The notes below the pieces were generated by a model. It made no database searches, was not told where the DNA came from, and saw only the letters and a list, made by a program, of their open reading frames with translations. 64,000 bases of DNA, from positions 1 to 64,000 of IMG/VR virus record IMGVR_UViG_3300050010_000483, one strand, 5' to 3'. Both the position numbers and the translations under genes were made by a program. The stretch comes from a virus. Positions 807-12,164 of the stretch are shown one piece after another. The first letter of the stretch is position 1. Every line of letters starts with the position of its first letter.

Positions 807-2612
807 ATGAAACCTAAAAAAGATACGTCTGAGCGTATCCAACAACGGGATAAAATTAAGAATACGTTCGATCTTAAACCATTAGCATGGACTGATCGCC
901 AAAAAGAGTTCCTCAAACTCGCTTTGGATAAATCAACCAGAATTATATTTGTCAACGGCCCTGCTGGCAGTACCAAAACTATCATGGCAGTCTTTGCCGC
1001 ATTGGAATTGCTTAACCAGCGTCGGGTTTCCGATATAATTTATCTTCGGTCGGCTGTTGAAAGCTCTTCTGAGAGTTTGGGATTTCTTCCAGGTTCAGTT
1101 GACGAAAAAATGATGAACTATGGCTATCCTCTCATGGAAAAGCTGGAAGAGCTGCTCACCAAACCTGAAATCAAAGCATTGTTGGCTGATGAACGAGTGC
1201 ATCTTCGTCCATTGAATTATATTCGTGGACAAAGTTGGAACGCCCGAGTGGCGATCGCCGACGAATGTTTGACTGGAGACAGTCAAATTGTTCTGGAAAA
1301 TGGCACCAAAACTATTTCAAATTTAAAAAAAGATCATAATTTGGGAAAACAATTGCCCTTGGTTAAAACTTTTAACGAAACCACAAGACAATTTGAATTT
1401 AAAAAAATCAAAAATATCATTTGCAATGGGCGACGGGAAACTGTCATTATTAGAGCGGGGAATCGAAAGATTCAATGCACTGATAATCATAAATTTTTAA
1501 CCAGCAAAGGATGGGTTGAGGCGCGAAACCTTCAAAAAGGAGACATTTTACTGGCCAATGATGAACATCGTCATCAGGTTTTAAATGCCCTTAACGACGA
1601 TCAAAAACAAGTTTTTCTTGGCAGCTTTTTGGGGGATGGAGGCGTTAGCAATCATGGGATTAATCGAAACCGATTAAGAATTATCCATGGAATCAAACAA
1701 CAGGAATATTGCCAGTGGAAAGCCAGCATGTTTGGTTCTTCCACTTCCATTATTGAGAAAAATGGTTACAGTCAAAAACCAGCCATAAAATTCGCCACTA
1801 AGTGTTTTGCATTTGACCAAAAAGATTTCGCTCATCATAAAAAGTCTCATTGTCCGCAATGGGTTTTGGATGAATTGGACTGGCGGGGCATAGGAATATG
1901 GTTTATGGATGACGGAAGTATTTTCGCTGGAAAAAACGGGGCAAAAATCTATACTTGTTCTTTTTCGGAGGAATCTCAACAAAAATTTGTGGAAAAATTT
2001 GAAAATCTTGGAATAAAATGCAAATATCATCTTGATCTGTATCCAAAAAGAGGAAAGGCATGTTTTAGTCTGGTTTTTGACAAGGAAAATACAATAAAAC
2101 TATTGGATAAAATCTCCCCATATATTCATGAATCCATGGATTATAAAAACATAAATTCACATACAAAGTACAAATGGAATAATATTTTTTTACCCTATAA
2201 TCATGTTATTTTTGACTCTATTAGTCCAGCCTCCGTTGAAAATGTATTTGACTTGGAAGTGGAGGATAATCATAATTTTATTATTGCTTCAAAAACAAGG
2301 GGAATGTTAAAAAATAATTCAGGAGTTATTGTCCACAATTGCCAGAACATGACCAAGGATGAAATCTTCACCATCATGACTCGCGTTGGTAAGTTCAGCA
2401 AGCTGTTTATTTTGGCCGACCCAAGACAATCAGACCTAAAAGACTCAAAGAAGCGCGGGGGGTTTACCAAGTTGGCCAAACATTTCACTCAAGAGAAAGG
2501 TCGGGCGGGCGGGATTCACTACTTTGAGTTCACCAGGGCCGACATTATGCGCGATGATTTAACTAAACTGCTTGTGGAACTGATGGAAGATTTGGATGCG
2601 CAGGAGAAGTAA
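807..2612 (+). CDS. phoH: PhoH-like ATPase precursor interrupted by an intein
   Basis: The 601-residue precursor becomes a 243-residue PhoH-like protein once a 358-residue intein (residues 154-511) is removed, a normal length for phage PhoH proteins. The Walker A loop is G51-PAGSTK-T58. The Walker B box is restored by splicing as ADE (151-153) joined to CQN (512-514), matching the family's DEAQN box with Cys in place of Ala. The C-terminal extein contains ILADPRQSD. PhoH proteins are P-loop ATPases often found in phages; their role in infection is unsettled. The start lies 20 bases after a GTGTAAT element with only weak ribosome-binding sequence. The 3' end overlaps the convergent gene at 2563-3069 by 50 bases. 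Confidence 0.9.
   Translation: MKPKKDTSERIQQRDKIKNTFDLKPLAWTDRQKEFLKLALDKSTRIIFVNGPAGSTKTIMAVFAALELLNQRRVSDIIYLRSAVESSSESLGFLPGSVDEKMMNYGYPLMEKLEELLTKPEIKALLADERVHLRPLNYIRGQSWNARVAIADECLTGDSQIVLENGTKTISNLKKDHNLGKQLPLVKTFNETTRQFEFKKIKNIICNGRRETVIIRAGNRKIQCTDNHKFLTSKGWVEARNLQKGDILLANDEHRHQVLNALNDDQKQVFLGSFLGDGGVSNHGINRNRLRIIHGIKQQEYCQWKASMFGSSTSIIEKNGYSQKPAIKFATKCFAFDQKDFAHHKKSHCPQWVLDELDWRGIGIWFMDDGSIFAGKNGAKIYTCSFSEESQQKFVEKFENLGIKCKYHLDLYPKRGKACFSLVFDKENTIKLLDKISPYIHESMDYKNINSHTKYKWNNIFLPYNHVIFDSISPASVENVFDLEVEDNHNFIIASKTRGMLKNNSGVIVHNCQNMTKDEIFTIMTRVGKFSKLFILADPRQSDLKDSKKRGGFTKLAKHFTQEKGRAGGIHYFEFTRADIMRDDLTKLLVELMEDLDAQEK
1266..2339 (+). other. Intein with LAGLIDADG endonuclease domain (in PhoH)
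   Basis: The in-frame insertion encodes 358 residues. Block A starts at Cys1 (CLTGDSQIV). Block B holds the T-x-x-H motif (CTDNH). Two LAGLIDADG-type motifs are visible (LGSFLGDGG, Asp at precursor residue 277; WFMDDGS, 368-369). Block F is DLEVEDNHNF and block G ends VIVHN before Cys+1. All splicing residues expected of a class 1 intein are present, so it should splice. The endonuclease motifs are also intact, so it may still be mobile. Base composition is more A-rich than the flanking exteins. Confidence 0.93.
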
Positions 2613-3518: not shown

Positions 3519-4193
3519 ATGAAAGCCACATTTGAAGAAAGTATCAAGATCATTGATGAAGAAATTGCCAAGCGAAAACACAAATGGAACTTGACTTCTT
3601 TAACTTGGATGGACTATGACGATGTATCTCAGATCATTAGAATTCACATTTACAACAAATGGGCGCAATATGATGAAAGCAAACCCCTGGCCCCCTGGCT
3701 TAACATCATCATTACCAATCAGATTAGAAATCTCATTCGCAACCATTATTCAAATTTTGCCCGTCCGTGTCTCAAGTGCGGGGCTGCCAAAGACATGACG
3801 GGCTGCGTTATTTATGGGACGCAGTGCGTCGCTTGTCCATTGTATGCTCATTGGGTGAAACGGAAAATGCCCGCCACCCAAATCAAAATACCCGTCTCCA
3901 TTGAAAATCATCAAAATGAAGTCAGGAGTATTTTTGATGATTCCACTGATGTATCCAGACATGCCGATAAATTGCATGATCGCATGAAGGAGATTTTAAA
4001 GCCAACCGAGTGGCGGGTCTATGAGGGATTATTCATTTTAAATCTGGATGAGGATGAAGTTGCAAAGCGTCTGGGTTACAGTTCCAATGAGAAGGATAGA
4101 AAGCCGCGCTATAAACAGATTCGTAACATACGTAAAATCATCATGGTTAAAGTAAAAAAATGCCTGGCGAACGGCGATATTGATATTATATGA
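3519..4193 (+). CDS. Sigma-like transcription factor with a cysteine cluster
   Basis: The 224-residue protein has the layout of a small sigma-70-family factor. Residues 30-80 look like region 2 (WMDYDDVSQ, then APWLNIIITNQIRNLIR). Residues 160-213 look like region 4 (LKPTEWRVYEG, then EDEVAKRLGYS and a basic recognition helix). Between them C84, C87, C96, C103 and C106 make a likely zinc-binding insert, not usual in sigma factors. Size and place next to the terminase genes recall T4 gp55, the late sigma factor. It is therefore the best candidate to read the GTGTAAT elements in front of the virion genes. The stop codon overlaps the next gene's ATG (ATGA). The sigma assignment is from motif pattern only. 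Confidence 0.7.
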   Translation: MKATFEESIKIIDEEIAKRKHKWNLTSLTWMDYDDVSQIIRIHIYNKWAQYDESKPLAPWLNIIITNQIRNLIRNHYSNFARPCLKCGAAKDMTGCVIYGTQCVACPLYAHWVKRKMPATQIKIPVSIENHQNEVRSIFDDSTDVSRHADKLHDRMKEILKPTEWRVYEGLFILNLDEDEVAKRLGYSSNEKDRKPRYKQIRNIRKIIMVKVKKCLANGDIDII

Positions 4194-6242: not shown

Positions 6243-6791
6243 ATGCAGGAGATTTGGAAAAATATTAAAGGCTACGAAGGACATTATCAAGTATCAAATA
6301 CTGGCAAAGTTAAATCTTTGGAACGTACTGAGATTTGTGGCGGTCGCGCCAAACAAAGAATTAGACGAGAAAGAATTTTAAAACCTGGGAAAGATTCAGA
6401 TGGTTATTTAAAAGTAATTTTATGTTTACATGGAAAACCCAATGGTAAAACAGTTCATAGACTCGTTTTAGAGACATTTTTTCCTGAAACTCAACCATCT
6501 ATTAATCATAAAGATGGAAATAAAGCGAATAATAACATCAATAATTTAGAATGGTGTTCAGTTTCTTATAATGTAATTCATGCTTATGATAATGGTTTAC
6601 ACCCAATCGGCGAACAACATTATAAGGCAAAACTAAAAAATGAAGATGTGACAATTATTAAAAATTTACTTTTTGATGGTTCTCGTCATTCAACAATTGC
6701 CAGAAAATTTAATGTGAGTATTTCTACCATTCAAGATATTTTAAAAGGAAGGAGTTGGAAACGTCATGTGGCACAGTCCTACGAAGTATAG
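6243..6791 (+). CDS. Free-standing HNH homing endonuclease (NUMOD4-HNH)
   Basis: The 182-residue protein has the domain order of phage homing endonucleases. A NUMOD4 module (WKNIKGYEGHYQVSNTGKV, from residue 5) is followed by an HNH core (VHR at 71-73, NHKDGNKANN at 88-98, NLEW at 101-104). A C-terminal DNA-binding helix-turn-helix of the NUMOD1 type spans about 133-172. It is more A+T-rich than the flanking genes and occupies the only sizeable gap in an otherwise overlapping operon, which suggests insertion. Its last 26 bases overlap the large terminase gene and contain that gene's Shine-Dalgarno sequence. No group I intron is evident around it. An HNH role in packaging, as for HK97 gp74, is possible but less likely given the NUMOD domains. 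Confidence 0.9.
   Translation: MQEIWKNIKGYEGHYQVSNTGKVKSLERTEICGGRAKQRIRRERILKPGKDSDGYLKVILCLHGKPNGKTVHRLVLETFFPETQPSINHKDGNKANNNINNLEWCSVSYNVIHAYDNGLHPIGEQHYKAKLKNEDVTIIKNLLFDGSRHSTIARKFNVSISTIQDILKGRSWKRHVAQSYEV
6746..6754 (+). promoter_or_regulatory. Strong ribosome-binding site of the terminase gene, inside the HNH gene
   Basis: AGGAAGGAG lies about 11 bases before ATG 6766 and within the HNH reading frame. It is one of the strongest Shine-Dalgarno sequences in the window, and it supports 6766 as the terminase start. Confidence 0.7.
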
Positions 6792-9700
6792 TAAAGAAGT
6801 CCTAGATTTCAACATTGAGGCCAAGGCTCTCAAGGGGGAATTGGACGACATACAAGCCAAGATTACCCTGGCCAAGTTCCTTTATCGCAACCTGGGTATT
6901 ACCACCAATTTCTTGACGGGAATTGATCTTTACCCTGATCAAATTATCACTATTAAAGGAATGCTTCAAAGCAATTATACCTTGTGTGTTTGGGGGCGCG
7001 GCGTATCAAAATCGGTAAGTTATTCTAATACATGGGTTATTGATCAAGAAAAAGGTCTGCTACTTCTTAAAGACCTTTTCCCTAATTTAGACTTTTCAAA
7101 AGATCAAGAGGTTAATATTCCAACTAGAAAATTCTGGAACGGTTCTGGATGGCAGGCAACATCTAAACTATTTATTCAACCCAAAAAAGATTCTTTAAGA
7201 ATTAAAACCAAACGAGGCTATAGTTTAGAGGGGGCCAAAACTCATATTATAAAAGTTTGGGATAAAACTCAATGCAAAGTGGTTTGGAAAAAATATCCAG
7301 AAATTACCAAAGACGATTATATTTGTATTAATAGAAATCGTCAGAATGAATGGGGAGAAGCAACCGATGCAAATGAATCTTATTTAATTGGTTTAATATT
7401 GGGAGACGGTTGTATTTCTTCCCACAACCCCTCAACAGAAATTACTACGGCAGATGAAGAAATATCTGATTTTTGTCTAAAATATGGGGCGAATATTCAT
7501 CTTAAAAAAAATACAAGGGCATGGGATTTATATTTTCCCAAAGACATAATTGATAAATTTCTTGGAAAATATCAAGTAAAACGCGGACTTTCATATGATA
7601 AAATAATCCCTCAAACAATATTTTCTTCAAAACAAATGCTAAAGGCTTGTCTTCAAGGTTTGTTTGACACGGATGGATGCGTTACTTCGTCGCAGTTGAC
7701 TGTGGAATATTGTTCCACCTCCATTGAAATGGCAAGACAGGTTCATTTCGCCCTTTTAACTTTTGGAATTGTTTCCCATTTAATGGAATATAAAATCCCA
7801 TCACCATTTGGCCATGCATGGAAAGTTATCATTACTGGTCAAGATTGCCGAATATTTTCGGAACAAATTGGTTTTCGTCTCTCACGAAAACAGAATATTT
7901 TAAATCAGCATCTTTTAAATGGCAATTATAATACCAACATAGATGTTATCCCAGGTCTTAAAGAATACTGCCAACGAGAAATTAAGTCTAAGGCTCGTCT
8001 TCCAAAAATCTTATCTGATGAATGGCGTAACAAAATTCGCCGTAAAGACAATCAACTAAATCTAACTTATGATACTTTAGACTCTTATTTAGAGTTCTTC
8101 GTTCGGGCTGGTATCACAGGAGAACATATAGAAAATCTTAAATCTATTAAAAACGAACATTTCTTTTTTGATCAGGTAGAATCAATTGAAGATATTGGTG
8201 GTCGGGATTGTTTGGATTTTAATATTCCAGATGGAGAAATGTATTGGTCAAATGGTTTTATCTCTCATAATACCTGGACGGCGGCAGTCTATTGCATCTT
8301 GCAGATGATCTTCTTTCCCAAGTCGTCTATATTAATTGCTGGCCCCACCTTCCGTACAGCCCGTTTCATTTTTAACCATATTGAAAAGATTGTCAATCAA
8401 CCTGAAGCTCAGATGTTGGCCGCCGCTTTTAATGTTGATTTTAAGGTACGTCGTAATGACGAGTTCCGTTGGAGTATCAATGGTGGGGAAATTGTGGCCA
8501 TTCCCCTAAACGGCGAAAAGATTCGTGGTTTCCGCGCCAACGTACTTCTGATTGACGAGTTTCTTTTGATGTCTGAGGATTTGGTGGAAAAAGTCTTAAT
8601 TCCTTATCTTGTATCACCCACTTCGGCTGAGGTTAAACGTCGTAAGCAAATTCGTGACAAGGAAAGTGACTTGATTCAGAGGGGAATCATCACCGAAACG
8701 GAACGCACCAAATTTACTGGCAATGCCAAACTAATAGCCCTGTCATCAGCCAGTTATACCTGTGAATATTTGTACAAAAAGTACGACGATTACGTAAAAA
8801 AAATTTACAGCCCCGACTTGCCTGACGAAGGGGCCAAGTACTTTGTATCACAGTTATCCTGGGATGCCATTCCAGAGGATCGTATGGATAAAAGTATCAT
8901 TGAAATGGCCCAGACTAACGAGTCTAATATGGCCACTTTCAAACGAGAATACTGTGCCCAATTTTTGGACGGCTCCGACAGTTACTTTTCCATGCAAAAA
9001 ATGATTGCATGTACTGTGCCAGATGGGGAAAAACCCACATTACTTGTGCGTGGTAAACGGGATAAAAAATACATTTTGGCCATTGACCCCGACTTTTCAA
9101 ACTCACCAACGGGTGACGATTTTGCCATGTGCGTAGTGGAATTGGATGATAACGGCAAAGGGGGAACCGTGGCTCATACTTATGCCGAATCAGGAAAAGA
9201 CTTGAAAGATCACATTCGTTATTTGCATTATATCCTGACCAACTTCGGCATTGATATGATTATTATTGACTATGCTGGTTATCAATTTATTGAAGCTGCC
9301 AATGAGAGTCAATTGTTCCGTGATGCCAATATGAATTTGAGTATTTTTGATTTTACTTCTGAGAAAGACGGGGAAGAATACAATGAAGAATTGCGCAAGG
9401 CCCGCAATTCATACAACAAGCAGATTGGACGCATAGTTTTCAATCAATACTTCACGAGCGACTTTATTCGCAAGGCCAACGAATGGTTGCAGGGATGTTT
9501 TGATTACAAACGTCTTTGGTTCGGCGGCAGTATCAAGGGATGTCCAGAAGTGTTTAATGAGATTGCTTCTTTGCCAATTGATTTCAAACAAGTTTTTGCA
9601 AACAAAGATTTGGACGATAAAAATGAAACCCCCATGGGTTATATGATTGATCGTCAGGAAATTTTATGCAAACAAACAAAATATCAGTGTGCCTCCATTG

Positions 9701-9894
9701 AAGTAAAGACTTCCCAGCGCGGAGTTCAGAGTTTTGATCTTCCCCTGGTGATGAAACGGGATAATACGGCAAGTAGAATGCGACGAGATAGTTATACCGC
9801 ATGTATGTTGGCAGCTTGGTGTATGAAGTCATATAACGATATCATGGCCTTCCAACCCACGAGTTTAGAAACATTTGAACCCATGATGATTTGA
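6766..9894 (+). CDS. terL: Terminase large subunit precursor interrupted by an intein
   Basis: The 1042-residue precursor contains a 420-residue intein (83-502), leaving a 622-residue terminase, close to T4 gp17. Splicing rebuilds the Walker A motif GRGVSK-T (residues 77-82 joined to T503). Walker B is VLLIDEF (D597, E598). The C-terminal RNase H-like nuclease shows its acidic residues in AIDPDFS (D774), IIIDYAG (D835) and RRDSYTA (D1008). The enzyme would pump DNA into proheads through the portal and cut the concatemer. The P-loop has Ser rather than Gly before the catalytic Lys. The start is set by a strong ribosome-binding site within the preceding HNH gene. Confidence 0.95.
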   Translation: MWHSPTKYSKEVLDFNIEAKALKGELDDIQAKITLAKFLYRNLGITTNFLTGIDLYPDQIITIKGMLQSNYTLCVWGRGVSKSVSYSNTWVIDQEKGLLLLKDLFPNLDFSKDQEVNIPTRKFWNGSGWQATSKLFIQPKKDSLRIKTKRGYSLEGAKTHIIKVWDKTQCKVVWKKYPEITKDDYICINRNRQNEWGEATDANESYLIGLILGDGCISSHNPSTEITTADEEISDFCLKYGANIHLKKNTRAWDLYFPKDIIDKFLGKYQVKRGLSYDKIIPQTIFSSKQMLKACLQGLFDTDGCVTSSQLTVEYCSTSIEMARQVHFALLTFGIVSHLMEYKIPSPFGHAWKVIITGQDCRIFSEQIGFRLSRKQNILNQHLLNGNYNTNIDVIPGLKEYCQREIKSKARLPKILSDEWRNKIRRKDNQLNLTYDTLDSYLEFFVRAGITGEHIENLKSIKNEHFFFDQVESIEDIGGRDCLDFNIPDGEMYWSNGFISHNTWTAAVYCILQMIFFPKSSILIAGPTFRTARFIFNHIEKIVNQPEAQMLAAAFNVDFKVRRNDEFRWSINGGEIVAIPLNGEKIRGFRANVLLIDEFLLMSEDLVEKVLIPYLVSPTSAEVKRRKQIRDKESDLIQRGIITETERTKFTGNAKLIALSSASYTCEYLYKKYDDYVKKIYSPDLPDEGAKYFVSQLSWDAIPEDRMDKSIIEMAQTNESNMATFKREYCAQFLDGSDSYFSMQKMIACTVPDGEKPTLLVRGKRDKKYILAIDPDFSNSPTGDDFAMCVVELDDNGKGGTVAHTYAESGKDLKDHIRYLHYILTNFGIDMIIIDYAGYQFIEAANESQLFRDANMNLSIFDFTSEKDGEEYNEELRKARNSYNKQIGRIVFNQYFTSDFIRKANEWLQGCFDYKRLWFGGSIKGCPEVFNEIASLPIDFKQVFANKDLDDKNETPMGYMIDRQEILCKQTKYQCASIEVKTSQRGVQSFDLPLVMKRDNTASRMRRDSYTACMLAAWCMKSYNDIMAFQPTSLETFEPMMI
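7012..8271 (+). other. Intein with LAGLIDADG endonuclease domain (in TerL)
   Basis: The in-frame insertion encodes 420 residues. It starts at Ser1 (SVSYSNTWVI) immediately after the P-loop Lys and ends DGEMYWSNGFISHN before Thr+1. Two LAGLIDADG motifs are visible (LIGLILGDG, Asp at precursor residue 214; LQGLFDTDG, Asp 303). Block F (DFNIPDGEMYW) is clear. Block B reads GAKTH, so the usual Thr of T-x-x-H is replaced by Ala. Ser1 and Thr+1 are permitted but less common splice residues. Precise splicing would restore GRGVSKT, so the terminase depends on it. Confidence 0.92.
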
Positions 9895-9920: not shown

Positions 9921-12164
9921 ATGGACAGCAGCATACGCATCAGACAACTTAATCAGGCCGATCTATCTGGATTTATTGGGGGAGTCATTAATCCCATCCT
10001 TCAGAGCAACGGTATAGGGTTCAGTGGAAAGACTCTCTCTCCAACTGGGTCGGGGTCTTTTGCGCTTGGGTCTCCATTATTGCCTTTCAGCCAGGTTGCC
10101 ACAAACAGTCTATTTCTTCCATCTGGCAGTGGTATTTTCTTTGGCCCAAATGTTTTTTTGACTTCAACCGTCAGTGGTAATACAGCATACCTTAACATCA
10201 ATGGTTATCTCATTTCATCTACGGCCCAGGGATTATCAATTATCGGCCCACAGGGACCAGTGGGAGCAACAGGACCAGTGGGGGCAACGGGACGCAGCAT
10301 TACAGGAGCATACGCCCTTAACGGCAATATGGTCCTGCAATACTCGGATGCCACGCAAAGCAATCCAATTTCACTTCCGTCAGGTGCCACGGGAGTAATG
10401 GGACCAACAGGAGCTTCACTATCCCGTTTTAATCAAAGCGGCAATTATGTTCAGCCCGTGTTTTCAAATGGAACGAGCGGAACATTCATTCTTTTAGCAA
10501 GCGGGGCGCAGGGACAACAGGGCGTGGCTGGGGGTATTTTTATTGATTGTAGTCAGATTACTGGCGTGATGGAGCATCAAATTGCCCCCGCCATTGACAT
10601 TTATAACGTCAATCCCAGTACAAACATAAATCCTGATTTAAATTTCATCAAAGGCATGAGATATACCATTGGTCAAAGTGGTTTAAATCTCAGTACCGTC
10701 ACTGTTTCTGGAACACCTTATAATACCAATTTCTTTATTGATGAATATGGTACGACTGGTTATCTTCGTTTTACTGTTTGGGGTATTGCTGTTCCAGATT
10801 CCACATATACGGGTCGGGTTGTCTATCCAGAAGTAAGTTTTAATCCAATAAACTATATTGATGATAGTTCTGTTTTGCAGAATATTGTTGAAGACCCATA
10901 CAAACGTTCGATTTCATTCAATATCTCTTTGGGGGCCAGTTCGGCATACTATTATGGTTTTGCCCGATATAATCTTAATGGCCAACTTTTTGGGACTAAC
11001 GGAGAACAAACCTATGGTGGTGTGGTTCTTGGTAATTTATATTGTGATTACTTTGGTCCAGTGGGTCCAGCAGGACCAGCAGGAACAATGGGTGTTCCTG
11101 GCCCACAAGGAGACATTGGACCAGCGGGTAACGGAGGAAACCCTGGGGTTGGCATCACAGGAGCCACTAGTAATGGGTCGCAAATGCAATTGTTTTACTC
11201 TGATGGTTCGACCAGTCCTTTATTGACATTACCAATGGGTGGTGCAGTGGGGCCAATGGGTCCTACGGGTCCGATGGGACTTACTGGACCACAAGGTCCA
11301 AATGGTGTGGCGGGTCAGGCTGGCGCGCCAGGTTTTGCAGATACATATGTATGTTATTTTGCCACTAATACCATTAATGCCACATCGGGTATTTCCCCAT
11401 CACTAAACAAAATGTCTAATGGTAGCAGTACATGGACATATTGTACTGGAAATCAAATGTATTTTCAAGGTGGGGACGCCATTCAATTTCAACATAATGA
11501 TCTCATTGGTAAGGCTTATTCTCCCTGGCAAAGTGTTATTATTGCGGATAATGACTATCCTGGTGCAAGATATTTTTATTCCTTTGTTGAATCTTTTAAT
11601 GCAACCGCTGGAAGTATAAGTTTACTTGTACAAAACACTCCTTATGCTCCCGTGGGATTAAATGGTTCTTATATGTATTGGAATCAATTTAACAGTATTG
11701 CCATGAACTTGGGTGGTCTTGGTTCTCCTGGACCCGCTGGTCCCATTGGCCCACAAGGAATACAGGGTCCAGCCAGTAATCCAAACCCAATATTTACCAT
11801 GAGTCCCTCTATCAATGTAAGCTCTCAAACCTCAAATACCGTAAATATTAATGGTAATACCTACAGTGCCTGGGTGCTTACTTTTAACAATTATGGCAAT
11901 ACGGTTAATTTTTTGTCTGCTGATTTTGCCGTTGGTGAAACAGTGCAACTCAATATAACTAACAATTCATCATATTCCAATACGGAATATCCTTTGATGG
12001 CTTGGACTATTGACGGAAATCCTGGAATTCATTTTCCCTATGGTGTGTCTGCGCCCGCACCAGAACCAAATACAACATCAATCTACACATTTGTAAGATA
12101 CCCAAACGATCCTATCGACGATTCTCCACGAATTTATTGTACATATACTTTGAATTATTCATAA
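9921..12164 (+). CDS. Collagen-like fibre protein, 747 aa
   Basis: The protein alternates globular beta-rich segments with at least five collagen-like Gly-X-Y stretches (for example GPQGPVGATGPVGATG near residue 110, GPVGPAGPAGTMGVPG near 380, GPMGPTGPMGLTGPQG near 440, GPAGPIGPQGIQGPA near 600). Such repeats form trimeric stalks in phage fibres. The N-terminus (RIRQLNQADLSGFI) matches that of the fibre protein encoded at 23486 (RLKQINNPELSGYI), suggesting a shared attachment point on the virion. It lies between terminase and portal, inside the head module, so it may decorate the head or neck rather than the tail tip. The receptor or ligand is unknown. Confidence 0.8.
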   Translation: MDSSIRIRQLNQADLSGFIGGVINPILQSNGIGFSGKTLSPTGSGSFALGSPLLPFSQVATNSLFLPSGSGIFFGPNVFLTSTVSGNTAYLNINGYLISSTAQGLSIIGPQGPVGATGPVGATGRSITGAYALNGNMVLQYSDATQSNPISLPSGATGVMGPTGASLSRFNQSGNYVQPVFSNGTSGTFILLASGAQGQQGVAGGIFIDCSQITGVMEHQIAPAIDIYNVNPSTNINPDLNFIKGMRYTIGQSGLNLSTVTVSGTPYNTNFFIDEYGTTGYLRFTVWGIAVPDSTYTGRVVYPEVSFNPINYIDDSSVLQNIVEDPYKRSISFNISLGASSAYYYGFARYNLNGQLFGTNGEQTYGGVVLGNLYCDYFGPVGPAGPAGTMGVPGPQGDIGPAGNGGNPGVGITGATSNGSQMQLFYSDGSTSPLLTLPMGGAVGPMGPTGPMGLTGPQGPNGVAGQAGAPGFADTYVCYFATNTINATSGISPSLNKMSNGSSTWTYCTGNQMYFQGGDAIQFQHNDLIGKAYSPWQSVIIADNDYPGARYFYSFVESFNATAGSISLLVQNTPYAPVGLNGSYMYWNQFNSIAMNLGGLGSPGPAGPIGPQGIQGPASNPNPIFTMSPSINVSSQTSNTVNINGNTYSAWVLTFNNYGNTVNFLSADFAVGETVQLNITNNSSYSNTEYPLMAWTIDGNPGIHFPYGVSAPAPEPNTTSIYTFVRYPNDPIDDSPRIYCTYTLNYS

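What the first reader, a model, noticed from the sequence alone, without database searches (positions are those of the whole stretch)
7012..8271. Terminase intein splits the P-loop between the catalytic Lys and Thr
The 420-residue intein starts at Ser1 directly after GRGVSK and ends before Thr+1. Splicing therefore regenerates the ATP-binding loop exactly at its most conserved pair of residues. Ser1, Thr+1 and an Ala in place of the block B Thr make this an unusual splice-site set. DNA packaging would be impossible before splicing.
Basis: partly seen in the sequence, partly recalled or inferred. Interest (0 to 1): 0.65.

Follow-up and report, generated by a model that had tools for sequence, protein, structure and literature searches.

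The report
Self-splicing insert in phage packaging motor
A phage's DNA-packaging motor gene carries a 420-residue self-removing insert (an intein) exactly inside the ATP-binding loop; that location is already known for other phages, but this intein belongs to a group whose chemical toolkit departs from the described pattern for serine-using inteins.

Summary
Confirmed. ORF 6766-9894 encodes a T4 gp17-type large terminase whose Walker A loop, VWGRGVSK|TWTAAVYC, is split by a 420-aa intein at 7012-8271 (Ser1 ... His-Asn, Thr+1). An intein-free ortholog (L004, about 70% identical) reads VWGRGVSKTWTAAVYC straight through, so precise excision restores the loop. A homologous intein (64%) sits at the same codon in L021/L107. 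The Lys|Thr site itself is not new: it is the 'classic' P-loop site (TerL1-a) of Kelley et al. 2016, and I found 28 further TerL inteins there. Ser1/Thr+1 is also a known subgroup. The intein belongs to a supported clade of 14 TerL P-loop inteins that lack the block B Thr (A/S/G instead) and the motif-NX His reported as the signature of Ser1 inteins (Gln or Glu instead), and that carry an invariant Cys400 two residues before the block F Asp; position 1 switches among Ser, Thr and Cys. The HINT and LAGLIDADG domains are intact (pLDDT 90), and presence is sporadic on the TerL tree, so it looks like a mobile, splicing-competent intein. Splicing itself is inferred, not shown.

The parts
6766..7011 (+). 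TerL N-extein (82 aa), ending in Walker A GRGVSK
   Evidence: aligns to intein-free TerLs L004, L005 and others
6994..7011 (+). 5' part of the Walker A loop (GRGVSK)
7012..8271 (+). 420-aa intein with HINT splicing domain and LAGLIDADG endonuclease
7012..7014 (+). Ser1 codon, N-terminal splice nucleophile
7177..7179 (+). Gln56, at or next to the motif-NX His position; Q or E in all 11 Ser1/Thr1 members
   Evidence: no His among residues 1-77
7234..7236 (+). Ala75 replacing block B Thr (A-K-T-H)
7243..7245 (+). His78, block B histidine, invariant
7381..7410 (+). LAGLIDADG motif 1 (YLIGLILGDG)
7651..7677 (+). LAGLIDADG motif 2 (LQGLFDTDG)
8209..8211 (+). Cys400, block F position 2, invariant in the clade
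8215..8217 (+). Asp402, block F aspartate
8266..8271 (+). His419-Asn420, penultimate His and cyclising Asn
8272..9894 (+). TerL C-extein (Thr+1, rest of ATPase with Walker B VLLIDE, nuclease domain) and stop codon
   Evidence: intein-free ortholog matches phrog_2 TerL 1.8e-29; top fold match T4 gp17

Best explanation
This is a full-length, mobile class 1 intein in the large terminase of a tailed phage, at the Lys|Thr P-loop site. Proposed pathway: Ser1 attacks the Lys82 carbonyl (N-O acyl shift), helped by His78 and Asp402 and perhaps by Gln56 in place of the usual NX His; Thr+1 takes over the acyl chain; His419/Asn420 cyclisation releases the intein; an O-N shift leaves GRGVSK-TWTAAV, a working Walker A loop. 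Its LAGLIDADG domain would cut intein-free terminase genes at this conserved codon and copy the intein in. Shown: sequence anatomy, exact empty site, homologous inteins at the same site, predicted fold, clade-wide residue pattern, sporadic distribution. Inferred: splicing, endonuclease activity, inactivity of the unspliced terminase, roles of Gln56 and Cys400.
For: ORF open across the insert with all essential class 1 residues: Ser1, His78, Asp402, His419-Asn420, Thr+1. Intein-free ortholog reads the exact spliced product. Homologous inteins at the same codon in L021/L107 (64%), L108, L109, L111, L185-L187. Intein fold at pLDDT 90, matching TliVMA and PI-PfuI. Extein is TerL. Mobility: GC 33.5% in the intein against 42-43% in the extein; at least 6 gains or losses on the TerL tree; window versus L187 inteins 49% identical while exteins are 39%. 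Low dN/dS against L107 (0.13, dS saturated).
Against: No splicing, endonuclease or ATPase data. The block B Thr that 'spring-loads' the N-junction in class 1 inteins and the NX His critical in tested Ser1 inteins are both missing, so splicing could be slow or conditional. No model coordinates were available, so active-site distances could not be measured.
Confidence: 0.87

Rival explanations
1. The clade uses an altered splicing mechanism in which the invariant Cys400 (block F, two residues before Asp402) is an auxiliary or primary nucleophile, as the block F:4 Cys is in class 3 inteins, with position 1 relaxed.
For: Cys400 in 14/14 members of the clade against 1 of 69 other intein C-termini; the clade is one side of a supported branch (95/93); position 1 varies S/T/C while Cys400 does not; block B Thr missing, as in class 3 inteins (PMC6195587); C400 and D402 lie two apart in one predicted strand and so probably face the same side.
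Against: Position 1 is still always Ser, Thr or Cys, so a side-chain nucleophile there appears to be required. [quoted passage not shown] Cys may simply be a buried small residue.
Confidence: 0.1
2. The intein no longer splices (degenerate active site) and the phage relies on an intein-free terminase elsewhere, or is defective.
For: Atypical residues at block B and NX.
Against: Open frame, intact terminal residues, homologs conserved in frame at 40-64% identity in other phages, low dN/dS; TerL is essential in tailed phages (established knowledge).
Confidence: 0.03
3. Splicing is slow or conditional as a regulatory device, so that the missing activating residues delay terminase maturation and time DNA packaging.
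For: Loss of two activating residues; conditional splicing is documented for the P-loop inteins of RadA and mycobacterial DnaB (PMC5790916 abstract, PMC6195587).
Against: No kinetic data. The intein is absent from the closest relative L004 and most other relatives, so phages do not need such a delay. Tested TerL inteins splice efficiently (PMC5050341).
Confidence: 0.12

Closest known systems
TerL1-a inteins of mycobacteriophages (Kelley et al. 2016, PMC5050341)
   Same: Inserted between the invariant Walker A Lys and the Thr of a large terminase, which the authors call a classic P-loop insertion.
   Different: All mycobacteriophage inteins use Cys as initiating nucleophile; here Ser1 and no block B Thr. 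Host terminase is T4 gp17-type (phrog_2).
Psychrobacillus phage Perkons terminase intein (MT325768; L025)
   Same: Same Lys|Thr site in a phage TerL; endonuclease-containing intein.
   Different: 27% identical; Cys1, canonical block B Thr (TLNH), Val at the Cys400 position.
Ser1/Ser+1 and Ser1/Thr+1 'cysteine-less' inteins (PI-PkoII, MjaTFIIB, PolB16; PMC10189870)
   Same: Ser1 and Thr+1 oxyester chemistry, block B His, block F Asp, His-Asn end.
   Different: Lacks the NX-motif His and the block B Thr; has Gln56, Ala75, Cys400.
Class 3 inteins (WCT motif; PMC5222942, PMC7664689)
   Same: No block B Thr; a conserved Cys in block F.
   Different: Cys is at F:2 not F:4, Asp402 is retained, no Trp at B:12, nucleophile kept at position 1.
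TliVMA and PI-PfuI inteins (7QSS, 1DQ3)
   Same: Best structural matches: HINT domain plus LAGLIDADG endonuclease.
   Different: Archaeal, other exteins and sites, only 16% identical.

Membership tests
Class 1 intein | Ser, Thr or Cys at position 1 | tested here: met
   Ser1; Ser/Thr/Cys in all 29 P-loop TerL inteins
Class 1 intein | Block B TxxH | tested here: not met
   His78 present, Thr replaced by Ala75. The Thr is typical of the class rather than defining; position 1 nucleophile defines the class (PMC5222942)
Class 1 intein | Block F Asp, penultimate His, terminal Asn, C/S/T at +1 | tested here: met
   Asp402, His419, Asn420, Thr+1
Class 1 intein | Autocatalytic splicing through a linear (thio)ester | not testable with these tools
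   needs expression and mass spectrometry
Ser1 oxyester inteins with motif NX (PMC10189870) | Ser1 with Ser+1 or Thr+1 | tested here: met
   Ser1, Thr+1
Ser1 oxyester inteins with motif NX (PMC10189870) | NX-motif His preceded by Arg/Lys | tested here: not met
   no His in residues 1-77; Gln56 at or next to the position (two of three alignments)
Class 3 intein | WCT triplet (Trp B:12, Cys F:4, Thr G:5) | tested here: not met
   Ile80, Asp402, Ser418
TerL P-loop Lys|Thr insertion site (TerL1-a) | Insertion between invariant Walker A Lys and Thr/Ser | tested here: met
   GRGVSK|T against intein-free orthologs
LAGLIDADG homing endonuclease | Two LAGLIDADG motifs with acidic residues | tested here: met
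   LIGLILGDG and LQGLFDTDG; LAGLIDADG_3 1.5e-16; fold matches to I-DmoI
LAGLIDADG homing endonuclease | Cleaves the intein-free allele | not testable with these tools
   needs in vitro cleavage
T4 gp17-type large terminase | Profile and fold similarity to TerL, Walker A and B | tested here: met
   phrog_2 1.8e-29 for the intein-free ortholog L004; top fold match T4 gp17, though the model is of low confidence, pLDDT 53

The most novel reading that the evidence does not exclude
The clade of 14 TerL P-loop inteins splices by a further catalytic arrangement: without block B Thr and without the NX His, the N-junction is activated by Gln/Glu56 together with an invariant block F:2 Cys, which lets position 1 alternate between Ser, Thr and Cys.
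Probability: 0.15. Interest if true: 0.6.

Novelty: new variant of a known kind. Interest (0 to 1): 0.4.

Why it matters
The P-loop terminase intein site is known, so the location adds a case rather than a principle. The useful part is the clade: Ser1 inteins that lack the one signature motif reported for them, with Gln or Glu and a new invariant Cys instead, in natural phage proteins whose function should demand efficient splicing. They give a direct test of which residues are needed for oxyester splicing, and Thr1 relatives (L108, L109, L187) extend the range of natural position-1 residues available for study and protein engineering.

Tried and rejected
P-loop Ser-Lys as an adaptation to the intein: rejected, because 13 intein-free TerLs also have GRGCSKSF. 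Chance ORF fusion or assembly artefact: rejected; identical in two other IMG/VR contigs, related intein at the same codon in L021, exact empty site in L004. Class 3 intein: rejected on the WCT test. Group I intron: no Rfam match in the window. Bacterial or prophage relatives of the TerL: none in genome contigs. phmmer of the single intein against PDB found nothing useful; the profile did. Profile of TerL against PDB sequences found no terminase; the fold search did, despite a low-confidence model. Perkons could not be included in the AlphaFold alignment, so it was left out. No coordinates were available in the Python box, so distances of Cys400 and Gln56 to Ser1 were not measured.

Full report
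OBSERVATION. The + strand ORF 6766-9894 is open over 1042 codons. Codons 83-502 (7012-8271) encode 420 residues, SVSYSNTW...NGFISHN, followed by Thr. Pfam finds LAGLIDADG_3 (1.5e-16), Hom_end (1e-4) and a sub-threshold Intein_splicing match that runs to residue 420. A six-member profile reaches PI-PfuI (1.3e-12) and the Mxe GyrA intein (1e-6) in the PDB. An AlphaFold2 model with 25 sequences has pLDDT 90 and pTM 0.90, and its best PDB matches are complete inteins with homing endonucleases: TliVMA 2e-21, PI-PfuI 1.5e-19, PI-PkoII 2.5e-13.

THE EXTEIN. The flanks are a large terminase: the precursor matches phrog_9 and other TerL families, the intein-free ortholog L004 matches phrog_2 TerL at 1.8e-29, and the top fold match is T4 gp17 (4e-14, from a low-confidence model). 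In that model a strand (72-77) and loop are followed by a helix starting at Lys83, as expected of a P-loop.

THE JUNCTION. Relatives were read at the site. L004 (about 70% identical) reads VWGRGVSKTWTAAVYC, exactly the predicted spliced sequence. Among 91 uninterrupted loops read in related loci (some of them from the same contigs) the motif is [GS]RGxGK[TS] or GRGxSK[TS]. Splicing therefore restores the loop to the residue, and the Ser before Lys is normal variation in this terminase family rather than an effect of the intein.

RELATIVES AND MOBILITY. The same intein, 100% identical, is in two further contigs. L021/L107 (one contig) has a 64% identical intein at the same codon with the same block B Ala. 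Searches with intein alignments brought the total to 29 different inteins at the Lys|C/S/T P-loop site of diverse TerLs, the window's included, as is that of Psychrobacillus phage Perkons. On the TerL tree, intein presence needs 7 changes, at least 6 forced by supported branches. L004, without intein, falls with the window and L107, both with intein, in one clade (100/99). Window and L187 inteins are 49% identical while their exteins are 39%, which suggests horizontal transfer. GC is 33.5% in the intein against 42-43% in the extein. All this fits a homing element; cleavage was not tested.

THE CATALYTIC SET. In the 29 P-loop TerL inteins position 1 is Ser in 8, Thr in 3, Cys in 18. All 11 Ser1/Thr1 members lack the block B Thr (Ala, Ser or Gly instead), have Gln or Glu at position 56, and have Cys at position 400, two residues before the block F Asp. 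Three Cys1 members (L185, L186, L207) share the set. These 14 form one side of a supported branch (95/93), and position 1 changes between Ser/Thr and Cys at least three times on the best tree, two of them forced by supported branches. Cys at this block F position occurs in 1 of 69 other intein C-termini examined. Pasch et al. (PMC10189870) describe a His (motif NX, preceded by Arg/Lys) as highly conserved in 58 Ser1/Ser+1 or Ser1/Thr+1 inteins and critical in the three they tested. The window intein has no His at all before His78. Two of three alignments with PI-PkoII and MjaTFIIB place Gln56 under the NX His; the third shifts it by one.

MECHANISM. The most likely route is class 1 oxyester splicing by Ser1, Thr+1 and Asn420 with His78, Asp402 and His419. 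Gln56 may stand in for the NX His (inference). A class-3-like role for Cys400 is possible but disfavoured, because position 1 always keeps a nucleophile and the WCT triplet is absent. Unspliced terminase should be unable to bind and hydrolyse ATP normally, since 420 residues separate Walker A Lys and Thr; this is inferred, with the RadA P-loop intein as precedent (PMC6195587).

COMPARISON WITH WHAT IS KNOWN. Kelley et al. (PMC5050341) describe TerL1-a inteins between the invariant Lys and Thr as a 'classic' P-loop insertion, with TerL the most frequent intein host in mycobacteriophages, efficient splicing of TerL inteins in a reporter, and Cys as the exclusive initiating nucleophile. Delta-group crAss-like phages typically carry an intein in TerL (PMC7886860). 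The location is therefore known; the Ser1/no-NX-His/no-block-B-Thr/Cys400 clade is, as far as the searched literature shows, undescribed. Subscription papers were not searchable, so this is a limited statement. Thr1 is allowed by the class 1 definition in PMC5222942, while PMC7664689 lists only Cys or Ser.

LIMITS. No experiment, no coordinates for distances, uneven sampling of the viral collection (the best 80 loci per scan are kept), and residue couplings that rest on one clade and so on few independent events.

Noticed in passing
window 6243-6791 (+): A NUMOD4/HNH endonuclease ORF (GC 31.9%) sits between the ERCC4-type nuclease gene and terL. It is absent in L004, L021 and L005, where the upstream stop abuts the terL start. 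Its last codons overlap the terL start, and a GGAAGGAG ribosome-binding-like stretch for terL lies inside it: two homing elements within about 2 kb.
   Followed up: partly
window 807-2612 (+): PhoH-like ATPase with a second intein (Cys1 ... VHN|Cys+1, LAGLIDADG_2) inserted in the Walker B motif ADE|CQN; intein-free relatives read DEAQN or DECQN straight through.
   Followed up: partly
L108, L109, L187 against window, L107, L111, L112, L115, L129, L188, L191: All 11 Ser1/Thr1 inteins pair Ser1 with Thr+1 or Thr1 with Ser+1, never two equal residues. Few independent events, so it may be chance.
   Followed up: no
L121, L123, L126, L127, L131, L132, L136, L137, L144, L151, L152, L163: Many other phage terminase-like proteins carry inteins at a different site...C... 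HN|TP(R/F)G, outside the P-loop.
   Followed up: no
L129, L195, L201: Terminases with two inteins in one ORF: one in the P-loop and another further downstream.
   Followed up: no
L207 3483-4289: A reduced 269-aa member of the same clade at the P-loop site (Cys1), apparently missing part of the endonuclease.
   Followed up: no
window 3519-4193 (+): Protein with a Sigma70 region 2 match (5.1e-6) upstream of the terminase, possibly a phage sigma factor.
   Followed up: no
window 9921-12164 (+): 747-aa protein with collagen-like Gly-X-Y repeats directly after the terminase.
   Followed up: no
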